A stretch of 64,000 bases of DNA from Theocolax elegans (Eukaryota > Arthropoda > Insecta > Hymenoptera > Cerocephalidae), in the NCBI GenBank assembly GCA_026168455.1, contig CM047426.1, positions 31,741,058 through 31,805,057 of the forward strand. Direction: 5' to 3'. Position numbers and translations under genes: made by a program. Below are positions 1 through 20,847 of this stretch, piece by piece (positions within the stretch are counted from its first letter, which is position 1; each line of letters begins with the position of its first letter). Under the pieces are notes generated by a model that was not told the origin of the DNA, ran no database searches, and saw nothing but the letters and a program-made list of their open reading frames with translations.

Positions 1-549
1 GGACAAAATAATTAAATTTTGTTGGTTAAAGTTGTGACAAATCACACACTTAACACTTGCACCAAATTAAAATTAATTATTTAACTTGCTCACAAGTCTA
101 AATAATTAATGTTTATAATAGTGTCTTGTGACTCACACGCACCAAGACTCTATACAATTGCTTCTACAAGCAAAAATAATTAATTATTAACAAAAAGAAA
201 TCCTTAAATTATTTCAATATCGTCGGTAATTTACCAGTAATGGTAAATTTAACGATTTCCCAAAATATTTCTTTCACCAGTTATAATCCAAAAGATTCCT
301 CACTGGCGAAAAGAATTTATTTTGTTATGGAAAATGCAATAATTAAAGTTTCAATCTATTAATAAATACAGAACAACAAATTATAAAGGAAGAAAAGACA
401 AAGAATAATATAAATTCTATATATGTATGTATTATCGGTCACACCGAACTAAATAAATTACTTTTAGAATAAAGTAGGCTCATTGTACTCTTTGTCCACT
501 ATGGTTGGTGGAATTTCCCAGAGCACGGCCTTTATTAAAAACAATTAAA

Positions 550-616
550 GGCGTTTCGTCCTCGATCTCCAGCTTGGACTCCTCAGTAAGGAACTGGAGA
601 TCTTACCTTAGACGTC
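550..616 (-). ncRNA. Type III hammerhead ribozyme (unit 1, one stem III mismatch)
   Basis: Same architecture as the copy at 942-1008: core CUGAGGA, GAAA, cleavage triplet GUC (between 611 and 610), and 9-nt loop-loop complementarity. One change (GACGUC instead of GGCGUC) puts an A-C mismatch in stem III, leaving three base pairs next to the cleavage site plus one outer pair. It is probably slower than the unit 2 copy but may still be active. Confidence 0.85.
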
Positions 617-941
617 TGTCGAAAGATGAACCGCGACGCCAGCAAGATGTTCCGCGGCTATATATATAGAAAAGAGACGACGATCTCTACAACGAGTGTA
701 GAGATATAGTCGTCTCCATCTGGTGGTGGGAAAAACCACCAGCCAGAGTGCGACGTATGCGACCTAGTCGCCGGTTATTTGAAAAATGAATCTATCGTTC
801 GTAAATTTCTATATATGTATGTATTATCGGTCACACCGAACTAAATAAATTACTTTTAGAATAAAGTAGGCTCATTGTACTCTTTGTCCACTATGGTTGG
901 TGGAATTTCCCAGAGCACGGCCTTTATTAAAAACAATTAAA

Positions 942-1008
942 GGCGTTTCGTCCTCGATCTCCAGCTTGGACTCCTCAGTAAGGAACTGGAGATCTTACCT
1001 TAGACGCC
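942..1008 (-). ncRNA. Type III hammerhead ribozyme (unit 2)
   Basis: Read on the minus strand, 5' to 3'. Stem III is GGCGU pairing with ACGCC. The cleavage triplet is GUC, with cleavage between 1003 and 1002. Stem I is UAAGG pairing with CCUUA. The catalytic core is CUGAGGA (consensus CUGANGA), stem II is GUCC pairing with GGAC, and the second core strand is GAA followed by the A of stem III. Loop I contains GAUCUCCAG and loop II contains CUGGAGAUC, perfectly complementary over 9 nt. Tertiary loop contacts of this kind are what make natural hammerheads fast at low magnesium. All invariant core bases are present. Stem III is closed, so stems I and II are hairpins and the ends leave from stem III (type III topology). 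Confidence 0.93.
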
Positions 1009-1333
1009 TGTCGCAAGATGAACCGCGACGCCAGCAAGATGTTCCGCGGCTATATATATAGAAAAGAGACGACGATCTCTACAACGAGTGTAGAGATATA
1101 GTCGTCTCCATCTGGTGGTGGGAAAAACCACCAGCCAGAGTGCGACGTATGCGACCTAGTCGCCGGTTATTTGAAAAATGAATCTATCGTTCGTAAATTT
1201 CTATATATGTATGTATTATCGGTCACACCGAACTAAATAAATTACTTTTAGAATAAAGTAGGCTCATTGTACTCTTTGTCCACTATGGTTGGTGGAATTT
1301 CCCAGAGCACGGCCTTTATTAAAAACAATTAAA

Positions 1334-1360
1334 GGCGTTTCGTCCTCGATCTCCAGCTTG
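1334..1360 (-). ncRNA. Truncated hammerhead ribozyme at the inversion junction
   Basis: Only the 3' half of the ribozyme (loop II remainder, GGAC, GAAA, CGCC) remains. The sequence switches to the inverted arm at 1361, inside loop II. Without CUGANGA and the cleavage site it cannot act. Confidence 0.75.
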
Positions 1361-1677
1361 TTTTTAATAAAGGCCGTGCTCTGGGAAATTCCACCAACCA
1401 TAGTGGACAAAGAGTACAATGAGCCTACTTTATTCTAAAAGTAATTTATTTAGTTCGGTGTGACCGATAATACATACATATATAGAAATTTACGAACGAT
1501 AGATTCATTTTTCAAATAACCGGCGACTAGGTCGCATACGTCGCACTCTGGCTGGTGGTTTTTCCCACCACCAGATGGAGACGACTATATCTCTACACTC
1601 GTTGTAGAGATCGTCGTCTCTTTTCTATATATATAGCCGCGGAACATCTTGCTGGCGTCGCGGTTCATCTTGCGACA

Positions 1678-1744
1678 GGCGTCTAAGGTAAGATCTCCAG
1701 TTCCTTACTGAGGAGTCCAAGCTGGAGATCGAGGACGAAACGCC
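1678..1744 (+). ncRNA. Type III hammerhead ribozyme in the inverted copy
   Basis: Identical in sequence to the ribozyme of unit 2 but on the plus strand, because it lies in the inverted arm 1361-1908. Cleavage is predicted after C1683. It is antisense with respect to the LTR element's transcript, so only plus-strand transcription would activate it. Confidence 0.9.
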
Positions 1745-3020
1745 TTTAATTGTTTTTAATAAAGGCCGTGCTCTGGGAAATTCCACCAACCATAGTGGAC
1801 AAAGAGTACAATGAGCCTACTTTATTCTAAAAGTAATTTATTTAGTTCGGTGTGACCGATAATACATACATATATAGAAATTTACGAACGATAGATTCAT
1901 TTTTCAAAAAAATTAAATTATTTATCTCACTAACGAGCCTAAATAATTAATTTTAAAATAAATATAAAAATAAATACAGTGTCTTGTGATTCACACACAC
2001 CAAGACACTATTTATTATTTTGCTTTTCCAAGCCCAAAACAACAAAAAAAAATTTCCTTTATAATTTACACTACACAACAAACACAAATTTAATTAAATT
2101 ATTTCAACAGTAGGTTTGCAACAAAATAATTATTTCACTAATTGTCGTCCCAAACGACAATTTTTCAGCGAAATATATTTATTTTATCCTAAGAAGGACT
2201 AAATAAATAATTTATGTTGCTACCAAGTTGAAATAATTTATATTTCCTTTTTTAAATACATTGAACGAAAAGGAAATGAAAATTTAATTATTTAACTTGC
2301 CAACAAGTCTAATCAATTAAATTTATACACCGAATTAATTTACTCAAACACACCAAAAAAATTATAACCAATTATTTAACTAACAAACAAGTCTAAATAA
2401 TTGGTAAAAATGTGTGGAGATATAATTTAAACACACAAAAAAGAAAAAGAAAGTTTTTTACATATATTAAAATTTCACAGCAAATAACGAATACGAAATA
2501 TTAGGTTAAATGCCGATCATTAAAATACGTGCAAAAAAAAAATTTAATTATTTAACTCACTCTCGAGTCTTAATAATTATATTTTATAACTCTCGTATCT
2601 TTGCGGAACAATCACACAAAGATACTTAACATTAATTGTTTAACTTGCAACAAGTCTAAACAATCAACACGAGCTATAAAAAAAATTTTCTCACACTCAA
2701 AAATTTCAAAAATATTTTACAAATATCGTGAGCAGTAATACTTAATAAATACCAAATATTAAATCAAGTAATTACTGTCAGATAATTGTAATAAAGAAAT
2801 AATTTTAATTATTTTACTCACACACGAGTTTAAATAATTAATATTACAACTATTGTAACTTTGCGGCAGTTTCACACAAAGTTACTTGCTGTTAATTATT
2901 TAACTTGCAAACAAGTCTAAATAATCAACAATAGTTATAAAATATATTTTATTCACACACAAATAAAATTACATATATTATAGAAATAAATAGTAATAAA
3001 TAATACAATTATTAGTTATT

Positions 3021-3805: not shown

Positions 3806-3941
3806 AACTCGAACTACTCACTCTCTCTCTCTCTCTCTCTCAAACTCAACCCGCTCACGTTTCGCCGCGACACTGCTCGCGCGCGAAAAGATGGCCGACA
3901 AAATCTTACTTTAATTTAAATCGGTGAGGACGAAACCGAAC
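3021..3941. other. GC-richer hairpin-dense leader of the retroelement; (CT)n tracts
   Basis: This is the part of the retroelement next to the primer-binding site. It contains nested inverted repeats: GAGAGCCGAT/ATCGGCTCTC at 3466-3489 (4-nt loop), TATACCGG...CCGGTATA spanning about 3690-3744 with an inner CTCGG/CCGAG hairpin, and (CT)n runs at about 3775-3802 and 3823-3841. Short open frames here are low-complexity products of the CT runs and palindromes and show no recognisable protein family. Confidence 0.5.
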
Positions 3942-3959
3942 GTCCTGTCACGGTCGCCA
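3942..3959 (-). other. Primer-binding site, tRNA-Arg type
   Basis: On the minus strand the sequence begins TGGCGACCGTGACAGGAC, complementary to a tRNA 3' end reading GTCCTGTCACGGTCGCCA. From memory this is the 3' end of an insect tRNA-Arg, the primer used by 412/mdg1-type LTR elements. It lies 2 nt from the LTR end. The match is 18 nt, long enough to be unlikely by chance. Confidence 0.65.
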
Positions 3960-3961
3960 TT

Positions 3962-4994
3962 TGTGACGTGGTATTCGCGCACCCGATCTAATTTAATTAA
4001 TTTTAATAATTAGAATTAATCGTTGGGCCGCGTTGCCCAATACCGCGCACACAATTAATTATTTTATCGCGAACTGCGGGCTGTCGCCAGGAACACGAGT
4101 TCGCTGGGACGATCGGTATGGAGGATTCGGGCAATCCTCCTTGCCTCGACACGATATAAAATTAAAGGATGTCGGCGGGAGCGGGGAGAAATAATAATTA
4201 CACTCACTCAATTAAAATAATAATGAATAAAACATTTATTAATTTAATTTATTAACAATTGGCCATCCAGGCCGTGTGCCACAACAATGTTCTTTCGCGC
4301 GGGCGGAAGAATCGGGAGCCAACCGGATCGAGATCCTCGCCTGCGGTTGACTCCTTCTTGATCTCCGCTATTCGGGTACCGGCGTACCCGAATACACTCC
4401 CGATGTACACGCACACATACACTCGGGGTAATGGGGGGAACGCGCGGTAGTATATAATACACTTACCGGGGTGCGCCCCGTGGATGGCCCAGCCGATCCG
4501 TGTCCCTTTGTCCTCCTGGGCAACGGAGGACGACGTCGGCTGCGGTGGTGGAAGGCGGCCCTGTGCCGCGGCGAGTGCCTCGCGAACCGCGTCCGCACTC
4601 ACACACAACTTCCCGTCCTTTACACACACACCAAATCACTCGCGGCTCACTCACGAGGATGTCCGGGTAACCGATGGCTTTCGCGCCTCACGCGCCTTGT
4701 CAGCCAGAAAAACTCTCGATCGGTCCGGATATAGTTTGTCCGCCTCGAGCGGCGGATCGGGACATACTGATTAGGCAATCGCCTAATTTTCGAAAAAGGG
4801 ATGAGAGTGGGGAACACACACACACACTCGCGCTCTCATCCCTACGTACTATTGCGCGCGTAATCGTACATTTGTAGAAAAATAAACAAGTGTCGTCGGT
4901 TGGCCTTGACATACGAAAGGCTCCGACGACTTACAATTCGACAATTTAAATACTCTATTCGTCGTGAATAGATTGTGTGACGATTTCCGTCACA
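3962..4994 (-). repeat. Candidate 5' LTR of the hairpin-rich retroelement
   Basis: The 1033-bp segment starts and ends with TGTGACG/CGTCACA, a 7-bp terminal inverted repeat of the usual TG...CA form. Its 3' end on the minus strand is 2 nt from the primer-binding site. Inside are several perfect hairpins: GGAGGATT/AATCCTCC (4120-4140), ATTAGGC/GCCTAAT (4770-4787), an 11-bp stem at 4797-4843, and GTCGTCGG/CCGACGAC (4892-4930). A consensus splice donor (GGTAAGTG) occurs on the minus strand near 4465. It would end a short open frame reading through 4629-4467, but I cannot say that this frame is translated. No second LTR copy is available to confirm the ends. Confidence 0.5.
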
Positions 4995-5492
4995 ACTGTA
5001 AAAGGTCATTATTTATTTACGTACTTCCTTCTTTGATCGGATCTTACATAATAACTTTTTATTGAACTGCATCTTAACAATTTCGCCAAAATCCTTTAAA
5101 CACTTAGGAGCCTCGTTTTTAGATTTGAAGAAATAAACTGTACCGTATCTTGTTTAGTTATCTATAATTGTCAAAATATATTTTTTATTGCTTGGAGTTA
5201 CCATGTAACAATATAGGGATGATAATTAAGTTAGAACTAGATGCGATTTTTAAGGCGGAAATTAAGAGTGTATAAAGTTTATGCTTATATAAACTTTATA
5301 TTAACATTCTTAACATTCGGAATCAGACTTTGGTGAACTTGACTAAATTTTTATATAAATATAGCTAAAATAAAATAAATCTTCTTTATGAACAATTGTA
5401 ATTTTTGTCATTATGTTAAATTTTGGTTATACGGAAAAATTGAAACATGCTTCATCATTTATAATCAAAATTTAAGATAATTATATGTACAT
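4995..5492. other. AT-rich DNA, no feature recognised
   Basis: This sits outside the LTR element. I see no coding frame of note and no repeat beyond short A/T runs. Confidence 0.5.
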
Positions 5493-13474: not shown

Positions 13475-15538
13475 ATGGAAAGAAGAAAAAGATTTAGTGA
13501 ATTAGGAAAAAAACAGAAGATAAGACGAATTAAACTTATTTTAAGTAAAAATTTAAAAAATGAAAATTGTCAACACACTGACAGTATTATTACAGTTAAA
13601 AATGTATCTGTTGATTGTGATAATGAAAGCATTATTTCAGCTAATCATTCATCTATTCATTGTGATAATGATACTGTCAGTGCTGAAGAAACTTTATGTA
13701 GTGACATTAATGTAGATTTTAGTAAAGATGTAGAAACACGTGAAAACAAAAGTTCTTCTGACTCTATTAATGATAATTGCAATGATGACGATAACATTAT
13801 TGCTTTATCACTTGCTTCATGGGCATGTAAGCATCGTATTACACACAGTGCTTTAAGTGATTTATTAAAACACATGAAAAAGTGGCCCGAAGGTTGTTTG
13901 CAGACATTACCATTAGATTCAAGAACGTTGCTTAGTACACCAAGGAATACTATAGTTATTCCATTAGGTTCAGGTGCTTATACACATGTAGGACTAGAGA
14001 ATTGTTTAGTGAAAATTATAAAAGATTGTAATTATCAATTATCTGTAATTTATATTGATATACATATTGATGGAATTCCGGTTTTTAAAAGTAGAAAATT
14101 AGGATTGATCCCAATTTTAGGCTAATTAGTAGATAACCAAAGACTTCAAGAACCGTTTCTTATATGTGCTTATTTTGGTAATGAAAAAGCTCCAAATATT
14201 TTTAAATTTATGGAACAATTTGTAAAAGAATACAATAGACTAATTACAGAAGGTTTTCATTACCAAAATAAGCTTTACACTGTACAAATTAGGTCATTTA
14301 TTGCTGATACAGTTGCTAGAAATTGGGTAATTTGTCATCCTGCACACAATTCACTGTATGCTTGTCAAAAATGTACGCAGAGAGGAGTAAAAGTAGGCGA
14401 AAGAATGCTTTTATTAGATGTTGATGCTCCACTTAAAACCGATACAAATTTCAGGCAAAATTTGCAAGATAAATTTAAAAATGTAATAAGTCCACTTGAG
14501 ATGGTAGGCATTGGAATGATTTCACAGGTTCCGTTAGACCCAATCCATCTGTTATATATGGGTATAACAAAAAAATTGTTAGGGATTTGGACAACTGAGT
14601 TTGGGAATGGCGTTGCTGTTCAAGAAATAAATAAAATATTCAGTGATAATTATGTTGCGTTAGGAGAATGTGTTCCGTCGGAATTTGCAAGGAAACCTAG
14701 GGCATTGGATGAACTTGATAGATGGAAAGCCACTGAATTCAGACTATTTTTATTATATCTTGGTACTGTTGCAATTAAAAATTATCTAAGTCCATGTAAA
14801 ATTATTCATTTTAATTCTCTTAGCTGTGCTATTAGAATTTTAAGCGATCCAAAGATATGTCAATATAATAATAAAGAAGCAGAAGAGCTTCTTAGATATT
14901 TCGTTAGACAAATGATAGTTCTGTATGGTGAACAGACAGTTATATTTAATGTGCATAATTTAATTCATTTGCCAGCAGATGTACTCCGGTTTGGACCGCT
15001 TGAAGAATTCAGTGCCTTTCCATATGAAAGTTATCTTCAAGTTTTAAAAAGTATGGTTCGTAATAGCTCTTCACCATTAGTTCAAATTAGAAGACGAATA
15101 AAAGAAAGAAGTCAGGTAGTTTGTACAAAATCTGAAGAATTAGAATATCCTTACATGCTAAAGAAAAAACCATTATATTATCAAAATGAACTTCCAGAAG
15201 GTTGTCATAGTGCTCATTCACAGCTTCAGTTTCAAAATTTCAAGCTAACCGATACAAAATTTAATAATTGTTGTTATTTGTCAGATGGTGCAATAATTGT
15301 AGTAAAATTTATTTGTTTTCAACATGAAACTCCAGTTATTGTCGGTCACTCATTTATTGACTATTCTTCTATACCAGATTACCCTTTTGATTCTCGTTAT
15401 ATTCAAATTTATCAAGTAAAAAACCTATCCAATAGATTAGAAATATGGCCGATAGATAAAATCGAAAGAAAAGGTTTTCAAATACCTTTTAAAGATTCTT
15501 TTTATATTTTTCCAATAATCCACTCATTTTATAATTAA
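13475..15538 (+). pseudogene. Tnp2-like transposase, one in-frame stop
   Basis: One frame of 687 positions runs from ATG 13475 to the stop at 15536-15538, broken only by TAA at 14123-14125 (position 217). After an acidic, low-complexity N-terminus come YIDIHIDGIPVFKSRKLGLIPILG, the stop, then LVDNQRLQEPFLICAYFGNE. These are followed by SFIADTVARNW, CQKCTQRGVK, PLDPIHLLYMGITKKLL and EFSAFPYESYLQVLKSMVRN. The series corresponds to Tnp2-type (CACTA/EnSpm) transposases: a DG...FKSS region, an F..D..AR motif, a CxxC site and a MH-like helix. The upstream sequence is AT-rich with no intron needed. A single point change could have made the stop. If it is real in the animal, this copy is non-autonomous. 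Confidence 0.7.
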
Positions 15539-19798: not shown

Positions 19799-20847
19799 GT
19801 AAGATGTTCAGAGTCAAGTATACCTTCTGCTATATAAAATGTCATGAAACTGCTGAAGTAAGTTTCAATATACCACAAGGGATTGTAAATAATATTTTGA
19901 GTCTGGGCGATGGATCAATTTTGAAAAATTTTCACATTTTTAATTTTAAACTAGAAAATATGGAATATTATTAAACTGATTTATCAGTTAGACCTCTTAC
20001 TTGATGTGCTACCCCTCAGAGTACTGTACAACATATCTGTAGAGTTTTTTGACTCTTCGGAAAGCATTAGGTGTACTTGACTCTGGACCTCTCCCGCAAA
20101 ATTGGCATTTCAAAGACGTACTACATCTTCTGCCTTATGAAATGTCATGCAACTGCAGGAGTAAGTTTCAATATACCACAAGGGATTGTAAATAATATTT
20201 TGAGTCTGGGCGATGGATCAATTTTGAAAAATTTTCACATTTTTAATTTTAAACTAGAAAATATGGAATATTATTAAACTGATTTATCAGTTAGACCTCT
20301 TACTTGATGTGCTACCCCTCAGAGTACTGTACAACATATCTGTAGAGTTTTTTGACTCTCCGGAAAGCATTAGGTGTACTTGACTCTGGACCTCTCCCGC
20401 AAAATTGGCATTTCAAAGACGTACTATACATCTTCTGCCTTATGAAATGTCATGCAACTGCAGGAGTAAGTTTCAATATACCACAAGGGATTGTAAACAC
20501 TATTTTGAGTCTGGGCGATGGATCAATTTTGAAAAATTTTCACATTTTTAATTGTAAACTAGAAAATATGGAATATTATTAAACTCATTTATCAGTTAGA
20601 CCTCTTACTTGATGTGCTACCCCTCAGAGTACTGTACAACATATCTGTAGAGTTTTTTGACTCTCCGGAAAGCATTAGGTGTACTTGACTCTGGACCTCT
20701 CCCACAAAATTGGCATTTCAAAGACGTACTACATCTTCTGCCTTATGAAATGTCATGCAACTGCAAAACTAAGTTTCAATATACCACAAGGGATTGTAAA
20801 TAATATTTTGAGTCTGGACAATGGATCAATTTAGAACTGATAAGGTA
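19799..20847. repeat. ~303-bp tandem repeat upstream of the transposase gene
   Basis: GCATTAGGTGTACTTGACTC recurs at 20064, 20367 and 20672, so the period is 303-305 bp. A diverged partial unit precedes it (19799-20063) and a partial unit follows (to about 20847). Copies are nearly identical. Each can encode a short frame (FCLMKCHATAGVSFNIPQGI...) that is not a known protein. The sequence GTAAGTTTCAATAT in each unit resembles a splice donor. The array lies in the presumed 5' region of the transposase gene, where it may affect transcription. Confidence 0.85.

What the first reader, a model, noticed from the sequence alone, without database searches (positions are those of the whole stretch)
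550..1744. Tandem 392-bp repeat with canonical type III hammerhead ribozymes and a 9-nt loop-loop kissing interaction
Four ribozyme copies (550-616, 942-1008, 1334-1360 truncated, 1678-1744 inverted) show CUGAGGA, GAAA and GUC with correct stems I, II and III. The loops GAUCUCCAG and CUGGAGAUC are perfectly complementary, which is strong evidence that the fold is selected. Tandem repeats with hammerheads are known from retrozymes, Penelope-like terminal repeats and salamander or schistosome satellites. A type III hammerhead with full loop complementarity, inside an LTR-type element of an insect, is to my knowledge not a standard case. The predicted product is a 392-nt RNA, linear or circular, with defined ends at 1003/1002 and 611/610.
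Basis: partly seen in the sequence, partly recalled or inferred. Interest (0 to 1): 0.93.

Follow-up and report, generated by a model that had tools for sequence, protein, structure and literature searches.

The report
Insect jumping RNA with kissing hammerheads
An insect genome carries about two thousand matching hammerhead ribozyme sequences in small repeats; their RNA is predicted to cut itself and would likely form small circles, and most of the inserted copies examined end in the way Penelope-type retrotransposons leave, so that machinery likely pastes them into the DNA and this would be a new branch of the ribozyme-bearing jumping elements called retrozymes.

Summary
In detail: three complete type III hammerheads and one truncated copy lie at the stated places in a 392-bp repeat. 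Rfam finds them, below its gathering cut-off. The host is an insect. The loop I/loop II complementarity is not a local accident: families A, B and C of the same genome have different loop sequences, yet each pairs with its own partner over 8-12 nt and with the others over 3-7. A pattern spanning the whole ribozyme matches 1,972 places, control 0.

The context needs correction. The array is a mobile insertion nested in another high-copy repeat; 3 of 3 other copies fetched are empty. Of 21 loci, 12 share 10-17 bp across the flanks. In 14 of 15 two-armed insertions one arm ends at unit position 188-201 and the other at 219-227. That short/long pair is the published "tail" signature of Penelope-like elements. 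Best reading: a non-autonomous retrozyme-type element with type III hammerheads, likely moved by Penelope machinery. Untested: cleavage, circles, kissing versus a nested off-state hairpin. The autonomous partner was not found.

The parts
404..416 (.). left target-site duplication, diverged (AATAATATAAATT; 10 of 13 positions as in the right copy)
   Evidence: empty sites in other copies of the host repeat, L071-L073; letters; the automatic flank scan alone gave only 6 bp here
417..1906 (.). the inserted element: two head-to-head arms of 2.4 and 1.4 units of 392 bp (right end uncertain by 1-3 bp because of shared A's)
417..1357 (-). long arm, RNA sense on the minus strand; outer end at about unit position 195 (site 1, no tail)
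1358..1906 (+). short arm, RNA sense on the plus strand; outer end at about unit position 225 (site 2, with tail)
1358..1360 (.). head-to-head junction with 3-bp overlap (TTG)
550..616 (-). type III hammerhead copy 1, stem III mismatch; predicted cleavage 611/610
942..1008 (-). type III hammerhead copy 2; predicted cleavage 1003/1002
1334..1360 (-). truncated hammerhead (3' part only) at the arm junction
1678..1744 (+). type III hammerhead copy 3; predicted cleavage 1683/1684; loops GATCTCCAG / CTGGAGATC
611..1002 (-). predicted 392-nt monomer RNA (GC 42.6%)
   Evidence: sequence
1453..1498 (+). hairpin region with the inferred reverse-transcription start sites (stem GTTCG/CGAAC)
1845..1890 (+). 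second copy of the same hairpin, next to the right end
797..841 (-). same hairpin, minus-strand arm
1189..1233 (-). same hairpin, minus-strand arm
1907..1919 (.). right target-site duplication AAAAAATTAAATT

Best explanation
It is a 392-bp repeat with type III hammerheads whose two loops are complementary, it sits in an insect genome as head-to-head insertions, and it is most likely a non-autonomous retrozyme-type element whose RNA is predicted to cleave itself, would circularise, and is likely reverse-transcribed into new sites by the enzyme of a Penelope-like element. Shown by sequence: hammerhead folds in several families; loop complementarity kept by different sequences in families A, B and C; two fixed outer ends about 30 nt apart; shared flank strings at most two-armed insertions; empty sites for the window copy; units of one insertion more alike than units of different insertions. 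Inferred: arrays are transcribed; the hammerheads, with loops kissing in the active fold, cut multimers into 392-nt monomers; monomers are ligated to circles; a Penelope-type protein binds a conserved hairpin at about u162-u207, cuts both strands of AT-rich DNA, and primes one cDNA at site 1 (u~191) and one at site 2 (u~225) of the same RNA, each able to run round the template more than once; the two cDNAs meet at random points and are joined, giving two head-to-head arms between target duplications.
For: Hammerheads. Insect host: 133 matches of Pfam 7tm_6 (insect odorant receptors, label recalled), none in the tool's 14 control genomes (the 12 named are prokaryotes). Loops: 8 representatives; own loops pair 8-12 nt contiguously with G.U allowed; between A, B and C 3-7 nt. 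Shuffled loops reaching the own value, of 20000: A1 0, A2 1, A3 377, B 14, C1 0, C2 3, D 214, D2 55. Abundance: 973+999 matches to a pattern spanning the ribozyme, control 0; family C pattern 433+374 raw matches, many counted twice, control 0. Ends: 14 of 15 two-armed insertions have one end at u188-201 and one at u219-227; family B ends about 40 nt apart over 4 loci. Shared flank strings of 10-17 bp in 12 of 21 loci, against 9 of 544 mismatched flank pairs. Empty sites 3 of 3 fetched. Hairpin at the start sites with changed pairs: GTTCG/CGAAC, GTTCGG/CCGAAC, GCTCGT/ACGAGC, GTTCGC/GCGAAC. Template: 24 of 28 arms cross the cleavage site and 0 of 35 inner ends lie within 5 nt of it. Divergence 0.41% within and 2.0% between insertions, 0 of 5000 label shuffles as low. 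Penelope-like elements are present, e.g. L070. Published mechanism (two adjacent internal start sites, both strands cut and extended, tail between the sites, AT-rich targets): PMC11167929, two of four parts read.
Against: No autonomous partner sharing the hairpin was found. The sample was small: of 8 stretches taken beside endonuclease matches, 5 showed no hammerhead within 650 nt and may miss the element's end, and 3 belong to the same family as L070. A motif seen in L054 occurs once. L070 has both ends at one site, no tail (by eye). The single-armed loci L011 and L018-L021 share 0-8 bp, and among two-armed loci L013, L015 and the window share 9, 7 and 6 bp, near the null. Rfam scores are below gathering. 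Folding prefers a nested hairpin (-26.7 kcal/mol) to the hammerhead without kissing (-11.3). Family C pairing of 12 nt, with stem II counted as 3 bp, seems long for loop kissing. Families D and D2 are not independent of A: D loop I pairs 8 nt with A1 loop II, as with its own, and D2 loop I pairs 11 with A1 against 9 with its own; with Watson-Crick pairs only, A2, A3 and D2 fall to 6, 6 and 4. Random inner ends also fit uncut multimers. Expression and cleavage were not testable.
Confidence: 0.73

Rival explanations
1. Same element, but the loop complementarity is selected for a nested hairpin that switches the hammerhead off and protects multimers or circles from cutting, not for kissing in the active fold.
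For: The nested fold is the predicted minimum-energy fold for A1, B and C1. Complementarity runs to 12 nt in family C, longer than a kissing helix should need. 24 of 28 arms were copied through uncut hammerheads. In a lizard Penelope-like element the hammerhead was silent without protein (PMC11167929).
Against: Stems I and II and the core are kept alongside the loop pairing; loop pseudoknots are required for fast cleavage in tested hammerheads (PMC3088659, passages). The program used cannot score the kissing fold, so the energy comparison is one-sided.
Confidence: 0.35
2. Reverse transcription used a linear multimeric transcript, and the hammerhead is dispensable for mobility, as reported in vitro for one Penelope-like element.
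For: Inner ends are unrelated to the cleavage site; cleavage-dead mutants of the lizard element still inserted in vitro (PMC11167929).
Against: 1,972 places keep the core and stem I pattern, which suggests the cut matters for spread; units and opposite arms within an insertion are nearly identical.
Confidence: 0.3
3. A fold-back or MITE-like DNA transposon, or a plain satellite that happens to contain a ribozyme.
For: Inverted arms, target duplications and tandem copies.
Against: The arms are not equal inverted repeats: outer ends differ by about 30 nt and inner ends are at scattered places. Shared flank strings vary from 10 to 17 bp.
Confidence: 0.05
4. A plant-style LTR retrozyme or a functional part of the surrounding LTR-like repeat.
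For: Type III hammerhead as in plant retrozymes; a primer-binding-site-like sequence at 3945-3963 in the surrounding DNA (by eye, label recalled).
Against: The 3 other copies of the surrounding repeat fetched lack it, and it occurs in other surroundings. Duplications are longer than the 4 bp given for plant LTR retrozymes (PMC7229834).
Confidence: 0.03

Closest known systems
Metazoan non-LTR retrozymes (Cervera and de la Pena 2020, PMC7229834, passages read)
   Same: Small tandem repeats (here 392 bp; reported 150-450 bp), GC below 50%, no coding capacity seen, dimers to multimers, target duplications longer than 4 bp; that paper names Penelope-like elements as a strong candidate mobiliser
   Different: Those carry type I hammerheads; this one carries type III with long loop complementarity, and its insertions show the two-site ends
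Plant LTR retrozymes (as described in PMC7229834 and PMC7761336, passages read)
   Same: Type III hammerhead; inferred circular RNA intermediate
   Different: Ends at two internal sites with head-to-head arms; shared flanks of 10-17 bp, not 4
Penelope-like elements: Poseidon of Anolis (PMC11167929, two of four parts read) and Penelope of Adineta (PMC3846280, passages read)
   Same: Two end sites 30-40 nt apart (the tail), inverted arms, AT-rich targets, short variable duplications
   Different: No reverse transcriptase or endonuclease gene; type III rather than minimal type I hammerhead
Type III hammerheads of termite and toad delta-like RNAs, termites and dipterans (PMC7936874, passages read)
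   Same: Type III with Watson-Crick pairing between helix I and loop II, in insects
   Different: Isolated motifs with about 4-nt pairing (GCCR/YGGC); their searches of hymenopterans, hemipterans and a cockroach found none
Pseudoknot hammerheads (PMC3088659 and PMC11300833, passages read)
   Different: Pairing of four to six base pairs in the examples in the passages read

Membership tests
Hammerhead ribozyme, type III | CUGANGA / GAAA / NUH core with stems I, II, III and stem III open | tested here: met
   copy 550-616 has one mismatch in stem III
Hammerhead ribozyme, type III | match to the Rfam covariance model | tested here: inconclusive
   RF00008 36.5 bits, E 8.1e-6 in 1.6 kb, but under the gathering score 48.5
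Hammerhead ribozyme, type III | self-cleavage | not testable with these tools
   needs in vitro transcription
Metazoan non-LTR retrozyme | tandem non-coding repeat of 150-450 bp with a hammerhead per unit, low GC | tested here: met
   392 bp, GC 42.6%, longest stop-free run 63 aa in the tripled unit
Metazoan non-LTR retrozyme | type I hammerhead (as described so far) | tested here: not met
   type III in the copies read; hence filed as a variant, not a standard member
Metazoan non-LTR retrozyme | expressed as linear and circular RNA | not testable with these tools
   no RNA data held
Penelope-mobilised element | two alternative 3' ends 30-40 nt apart (tail) | tested here: met
   14 of 15 two-armed insertions; family B over 4 loci
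Penelope-mobilised element | inverted arms with short AT-rich target duplications | tested here: met
   10-17 bp in 12 of 21 loci (12 of 15 two-armed, 0 of 5 single-armed); 3 of 3 empty sites for the window copy, imperfect 13-bp duplication
Penelope-mobilised element | autonomous element sharing the start-site hairpin | tested here: inconclusive
   Penelope-like elements present; no shared hairpin in L070 or 8 short stretches, 5 of which may not reach an element end
Penelope-like element, autonomous | own RT and GIY-YIG gene | tested here: not met
   longest stop-free run 63 aa in the tripled unit
Plant LTR retrozyme | 4-bp target duplications | tested here: not met
   10-17 bp
Plant LTR retrozyme | LTRs with PBS and PPT | not tested
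   no formal search; the ends found are at two internal sites

The most novel reading that the evidence does not exclude
A new class of animal retrozyme: type III hammerheads with a long, co-evolving kissing (or switch) helix make small RNA circles, and a Penelope-type enzyme copies one circle from both ends of a broken target at once, one cDNA from each of two start sites, so that each insertion is a fossil record of twin-primed, rolling reverse transcription of a single circle.
Probability: 0.5. Interest if true: 0.86.

Novelty: new variant of a known kind. Interest (0 to 1): 0.73.

Why it matters
How animal retrozymes move has been open: Penelope-like elements were proposed from shared type I hammerheads, tandem copies and co-occurrence (PMC7229834, passages). 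Here the insertion ends themselves carry the Penelope signature, which makes the proposal testable. It also puts type III hammerheads, described as mostly a plant feature among eukaryotic genomes, into an abundant insect element family, and offers at least three natural sequence solutions (A, B, C) of a long loop-loop helix for structure work. In the listings (titles and abstract beginnings) of my 8 searches of the held library I saw no report of type III tandem retrozymes in animals or of the tail signature on retrozymes; subscription papers and preprints are not held.

Tried and rejected
Rejected: chance; part of the surrounding LTR-like repeat; the cut linear monomer as main template (0 of 35 inner ends within 5 nt of the cleavage site); a fold-back DNA element. 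Viral source: the family A core has no exact match in viral contigs; a looser core pattern gave one viral contig with an unrelated hammerhead. A tail-like motif in L054 suggested a partner, but the pattern occurs once in the genome, so it was dropped. A protein search with a window open frame gave nothing. NCBIfam gave only a match far under its cut-off for L070, and the PDB sequence search gave none. A fuzzy-regex script timed out and one script failed; both questions were redone another way. No RNA model was built.

Choices and dropped rows. Of 21 places outside the window listed, 20 were fetched (C1:32877364 was left out). They come from the 40 best of 1130 candidates, so they favour young copies. 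One search counts 15 two-armed insertions; L028 (rearranged) and the single-armed L011 and L018-L021 are not among them; two left arms interrupted by later inserts (L023, L024) were left out of the 28 arms. One search used 24 rows, some loci twice; its strings are the longest exact matches and can include a few element bases. One search leaves out L012, L014, L022 and L028 (nested, duplicated or broken copies); with all 21 loci the means are 1.0% within and 2.5% between insertions. The representatives were chosen by eye from lists that show only the first places on chromosome C1, with stem lengths set by hand (3 bp for stem II of family C).

Full report
Observation. The repeat is 392 bp, 2.4 head-to-tail copies at 411-1360 with 99% matches, followed by an inverted arm to about 1906. 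Rfam finds RF00008 at 36.5, 36.5 and 30.9 bits, below its gathering score of 48.5. Copy 550-616 carries a stem III mismatch. The 9-nt loop complementarity is exact.

Place. The window lies in a 658-Mb genome with 133 matches of Pfam 7tm_6 (insect odorant receptors, label recalled), so the insect call holds. The flanks belong to a repeat with many copies; the other full-length ones scored are 96-99% identical to it (860 first-look candidates, 40 scored). Three copies were fetched, and all three lack the array and run straight through the site. The insertion therefore spans about 417-1906, between a right duplication AAAAAATTAAATT and a left copy that agrees at 10 of 13 positions; a blind comparison of the two flanks finds only 6 bp.

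Other copies. The first look for a 121-bp query gave 1130 candidates, of which 40 were scored. Twenty of the 21 other places listed were fetched (L010-L029). With the window that makes 21 loci, 15 of them two-armed. The arms meet head to head at varying points; the outer ends hardly vary: 14 of 15 insertions have one end at u188-201 and the other at u219-227, the exception being L013. If the two end types were equally likely and independent, 14 or more mixed pairs of 15 would have a chance of about 5e-4 (own arithmetic). The flanks share exact strings of 10-17 bp in 12 of 21 loci, against 9 of 544 mismatched flank pairs. All 12 are two-armed; the other three two-armed loci share 9, 7 and 6 bp, and the five single-armed loci 0-8 bp.

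Meaning of the ends. In an anole Penelope-like element, reverse transcription starts at two adjacent internal RNA sites, both DNA strands are cut and extended, and the stretch between the sites is the known 30-40 bp tail (PMC11167929, two of four parts read). A rotifer Penelope shows inverted arms, 8-10 bp duplications and a 31-bp tail on one arm (PMC3846280, passages read). The present insertions match this. Around site 1 lies a hairpin whose stem differs by compensating changes between families: GTTCG/CGAAC (A1), GTTCGG/CCGAAC (A2), GCTCGT/ACGAGC (B), GTTCGC/GCGAAC (D). Family B ends fall at two places about 40 nt apart over four loci.

Template. 24 of 28 arms pass through the cleavage site, and none of 35 inner ends lies within 5 nt of it. 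Within insertions, units differ by 0.41%, against 2.0% between insertions; opposite arms 0.55%, same orientation 0.22%; 0 of 5000 label shuffles were as low (59 laps, four loci left out; with all 21 loci 1.0% against 2.5%). Both arms thus come from the same template species. A circle explains this most simply; a uniform multimer is not excluded.

Ribozyme families. A loose core pattern matches 4442+4623 places, against 190+182 for the reversed control. Of the 30 loci fetched there, 7 are of the type III families (L041, L042, L043, L047, L053, L063, L065), and most of the rest look by eye like the minimal type I hammerheads known from Penelope-like elements. A pattern spanning the whole ribozyme with stem I TAAGG/CTTA gives 973+999 matches, control 0; the places listed, the first on C1, include families A, B and D. 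A pattern that catches family C gives 433+374 raw matches, control 0, many of them double hits on one place.

Loop pairing. For eight representatives, own loops pair 8-12 nt contiguously with G.U allowed, and families A, B and C pair with each other over 3-7 nt. Three different sequence solutions with the same complementarity are strong evidence that the pairing is selected. Families D and D2 add little independent weight: their loop I pairs with loop II of A1 as well as, or better than, with their own (8 and 8 for D; 11 and 9 for D2). Shuffled loops reach the own value in 377 (A3) and 214 (D) of 20000, and in 0-55 for the other six. Complementarity does not say which fold is selected: RNAfold prefers a nested hairpin with the same bases (-26.7 against -11.3 kcal/mol for the hammerhead without kissing), but cannot score kissing. 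The circular monomer is unusually well folded (-127.3 kcal/mol, z -8.0 against 60 shuffles of my own making).

Partner. Penelope-like elements exist here: 98 GIY-YIG matches at E <= 0.001 among 150 scored of 1713 candidates. L070 has two head-to-head arms with a minimal hammerhead near each outer end; one arm's open frame matches RVT_1 and GIY-YIG, the other's GIY-YIG only. L070 and 8 further short stretches beside GIY-YIG matches do not carry the retrozyme hairpin, but 5 of the 8 may not reach an element end and 3 are of the L070 family. L070 shows no tail (by eye). The autonomous partner stays unknown.

Prior work. Animal retrozymes were described with type I hammerheads and proposed to be moved by Penelope-like elements (PMC7229834, passages). 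Type III hammerheads with short loop pairing are reported from termites and dipterans as isolated motifs, with none found in hymenopterans, hemipterans and a cockroach (PMC7936874, passages). Loop pseudoknots are common in hammerheads (PMC3088659, passages). In the listings of my eight searches I saw no report of the combination found here.

Verdict. It works like a retrozyme moved by Penelope machinery; because animal retrozymes have been described with type I hammerheads, it is filed as a new variant of a known kind.

Noticed in passing
G000 whole genome: 9,065 matches to a loose hammerhead core pattern against 372 for the reversed control; most of the 30 loci fetched look by eye like minimal type I hammerheads with an extra G before stem II, in several stem-II sequence families.
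   Followed up: partly
L065 and C1:68254056-68257495: Family C: a tandem repeat of about 510 bp with a type III hammerhead and up to 12-nt loop complementarity (GGGACCGTCTGC/GCAGACGGTCCC), including compensating variants.
   Followed up: partly
C1:34222682-34244280: Array of about 20 kb of family B with many spacings near 497 bp or multiples of it.
   Followed up: no
window 3940-5000, minus strand: Sequence resembling a retrotransposon primer-binding site (TGGCGACCGTGACAGG, label recalled) beside a possible LTR (3965-4994, TGTGACG...CGTCACA); the surrounding repeat may be an LTR element with a long non-coding leader.
   Followed up: no
window 19824-20836: 303-bp tandem repeat, 3.3 copies, 96%; no Rfam gathering-level match and no hammerhead core.
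   Followed up: no
L070: Penelope-like element with two head-to-head arms, a minimal type I hammerhead near each outer end and both ends at the same site (no tail).
   Followed up: partly
L024 1640-7934: 6.3-kb insert with inverted ends (CCCTGTC...GACAGGG) inside a family A array; looks like a DNA transposon.
   Followed up: no
window 14126-15535: 470-aa open frame with a weak DUF4218 match, 25.5 bits against a cut-off of 27; possibly an old transposase.
   Followed up: no
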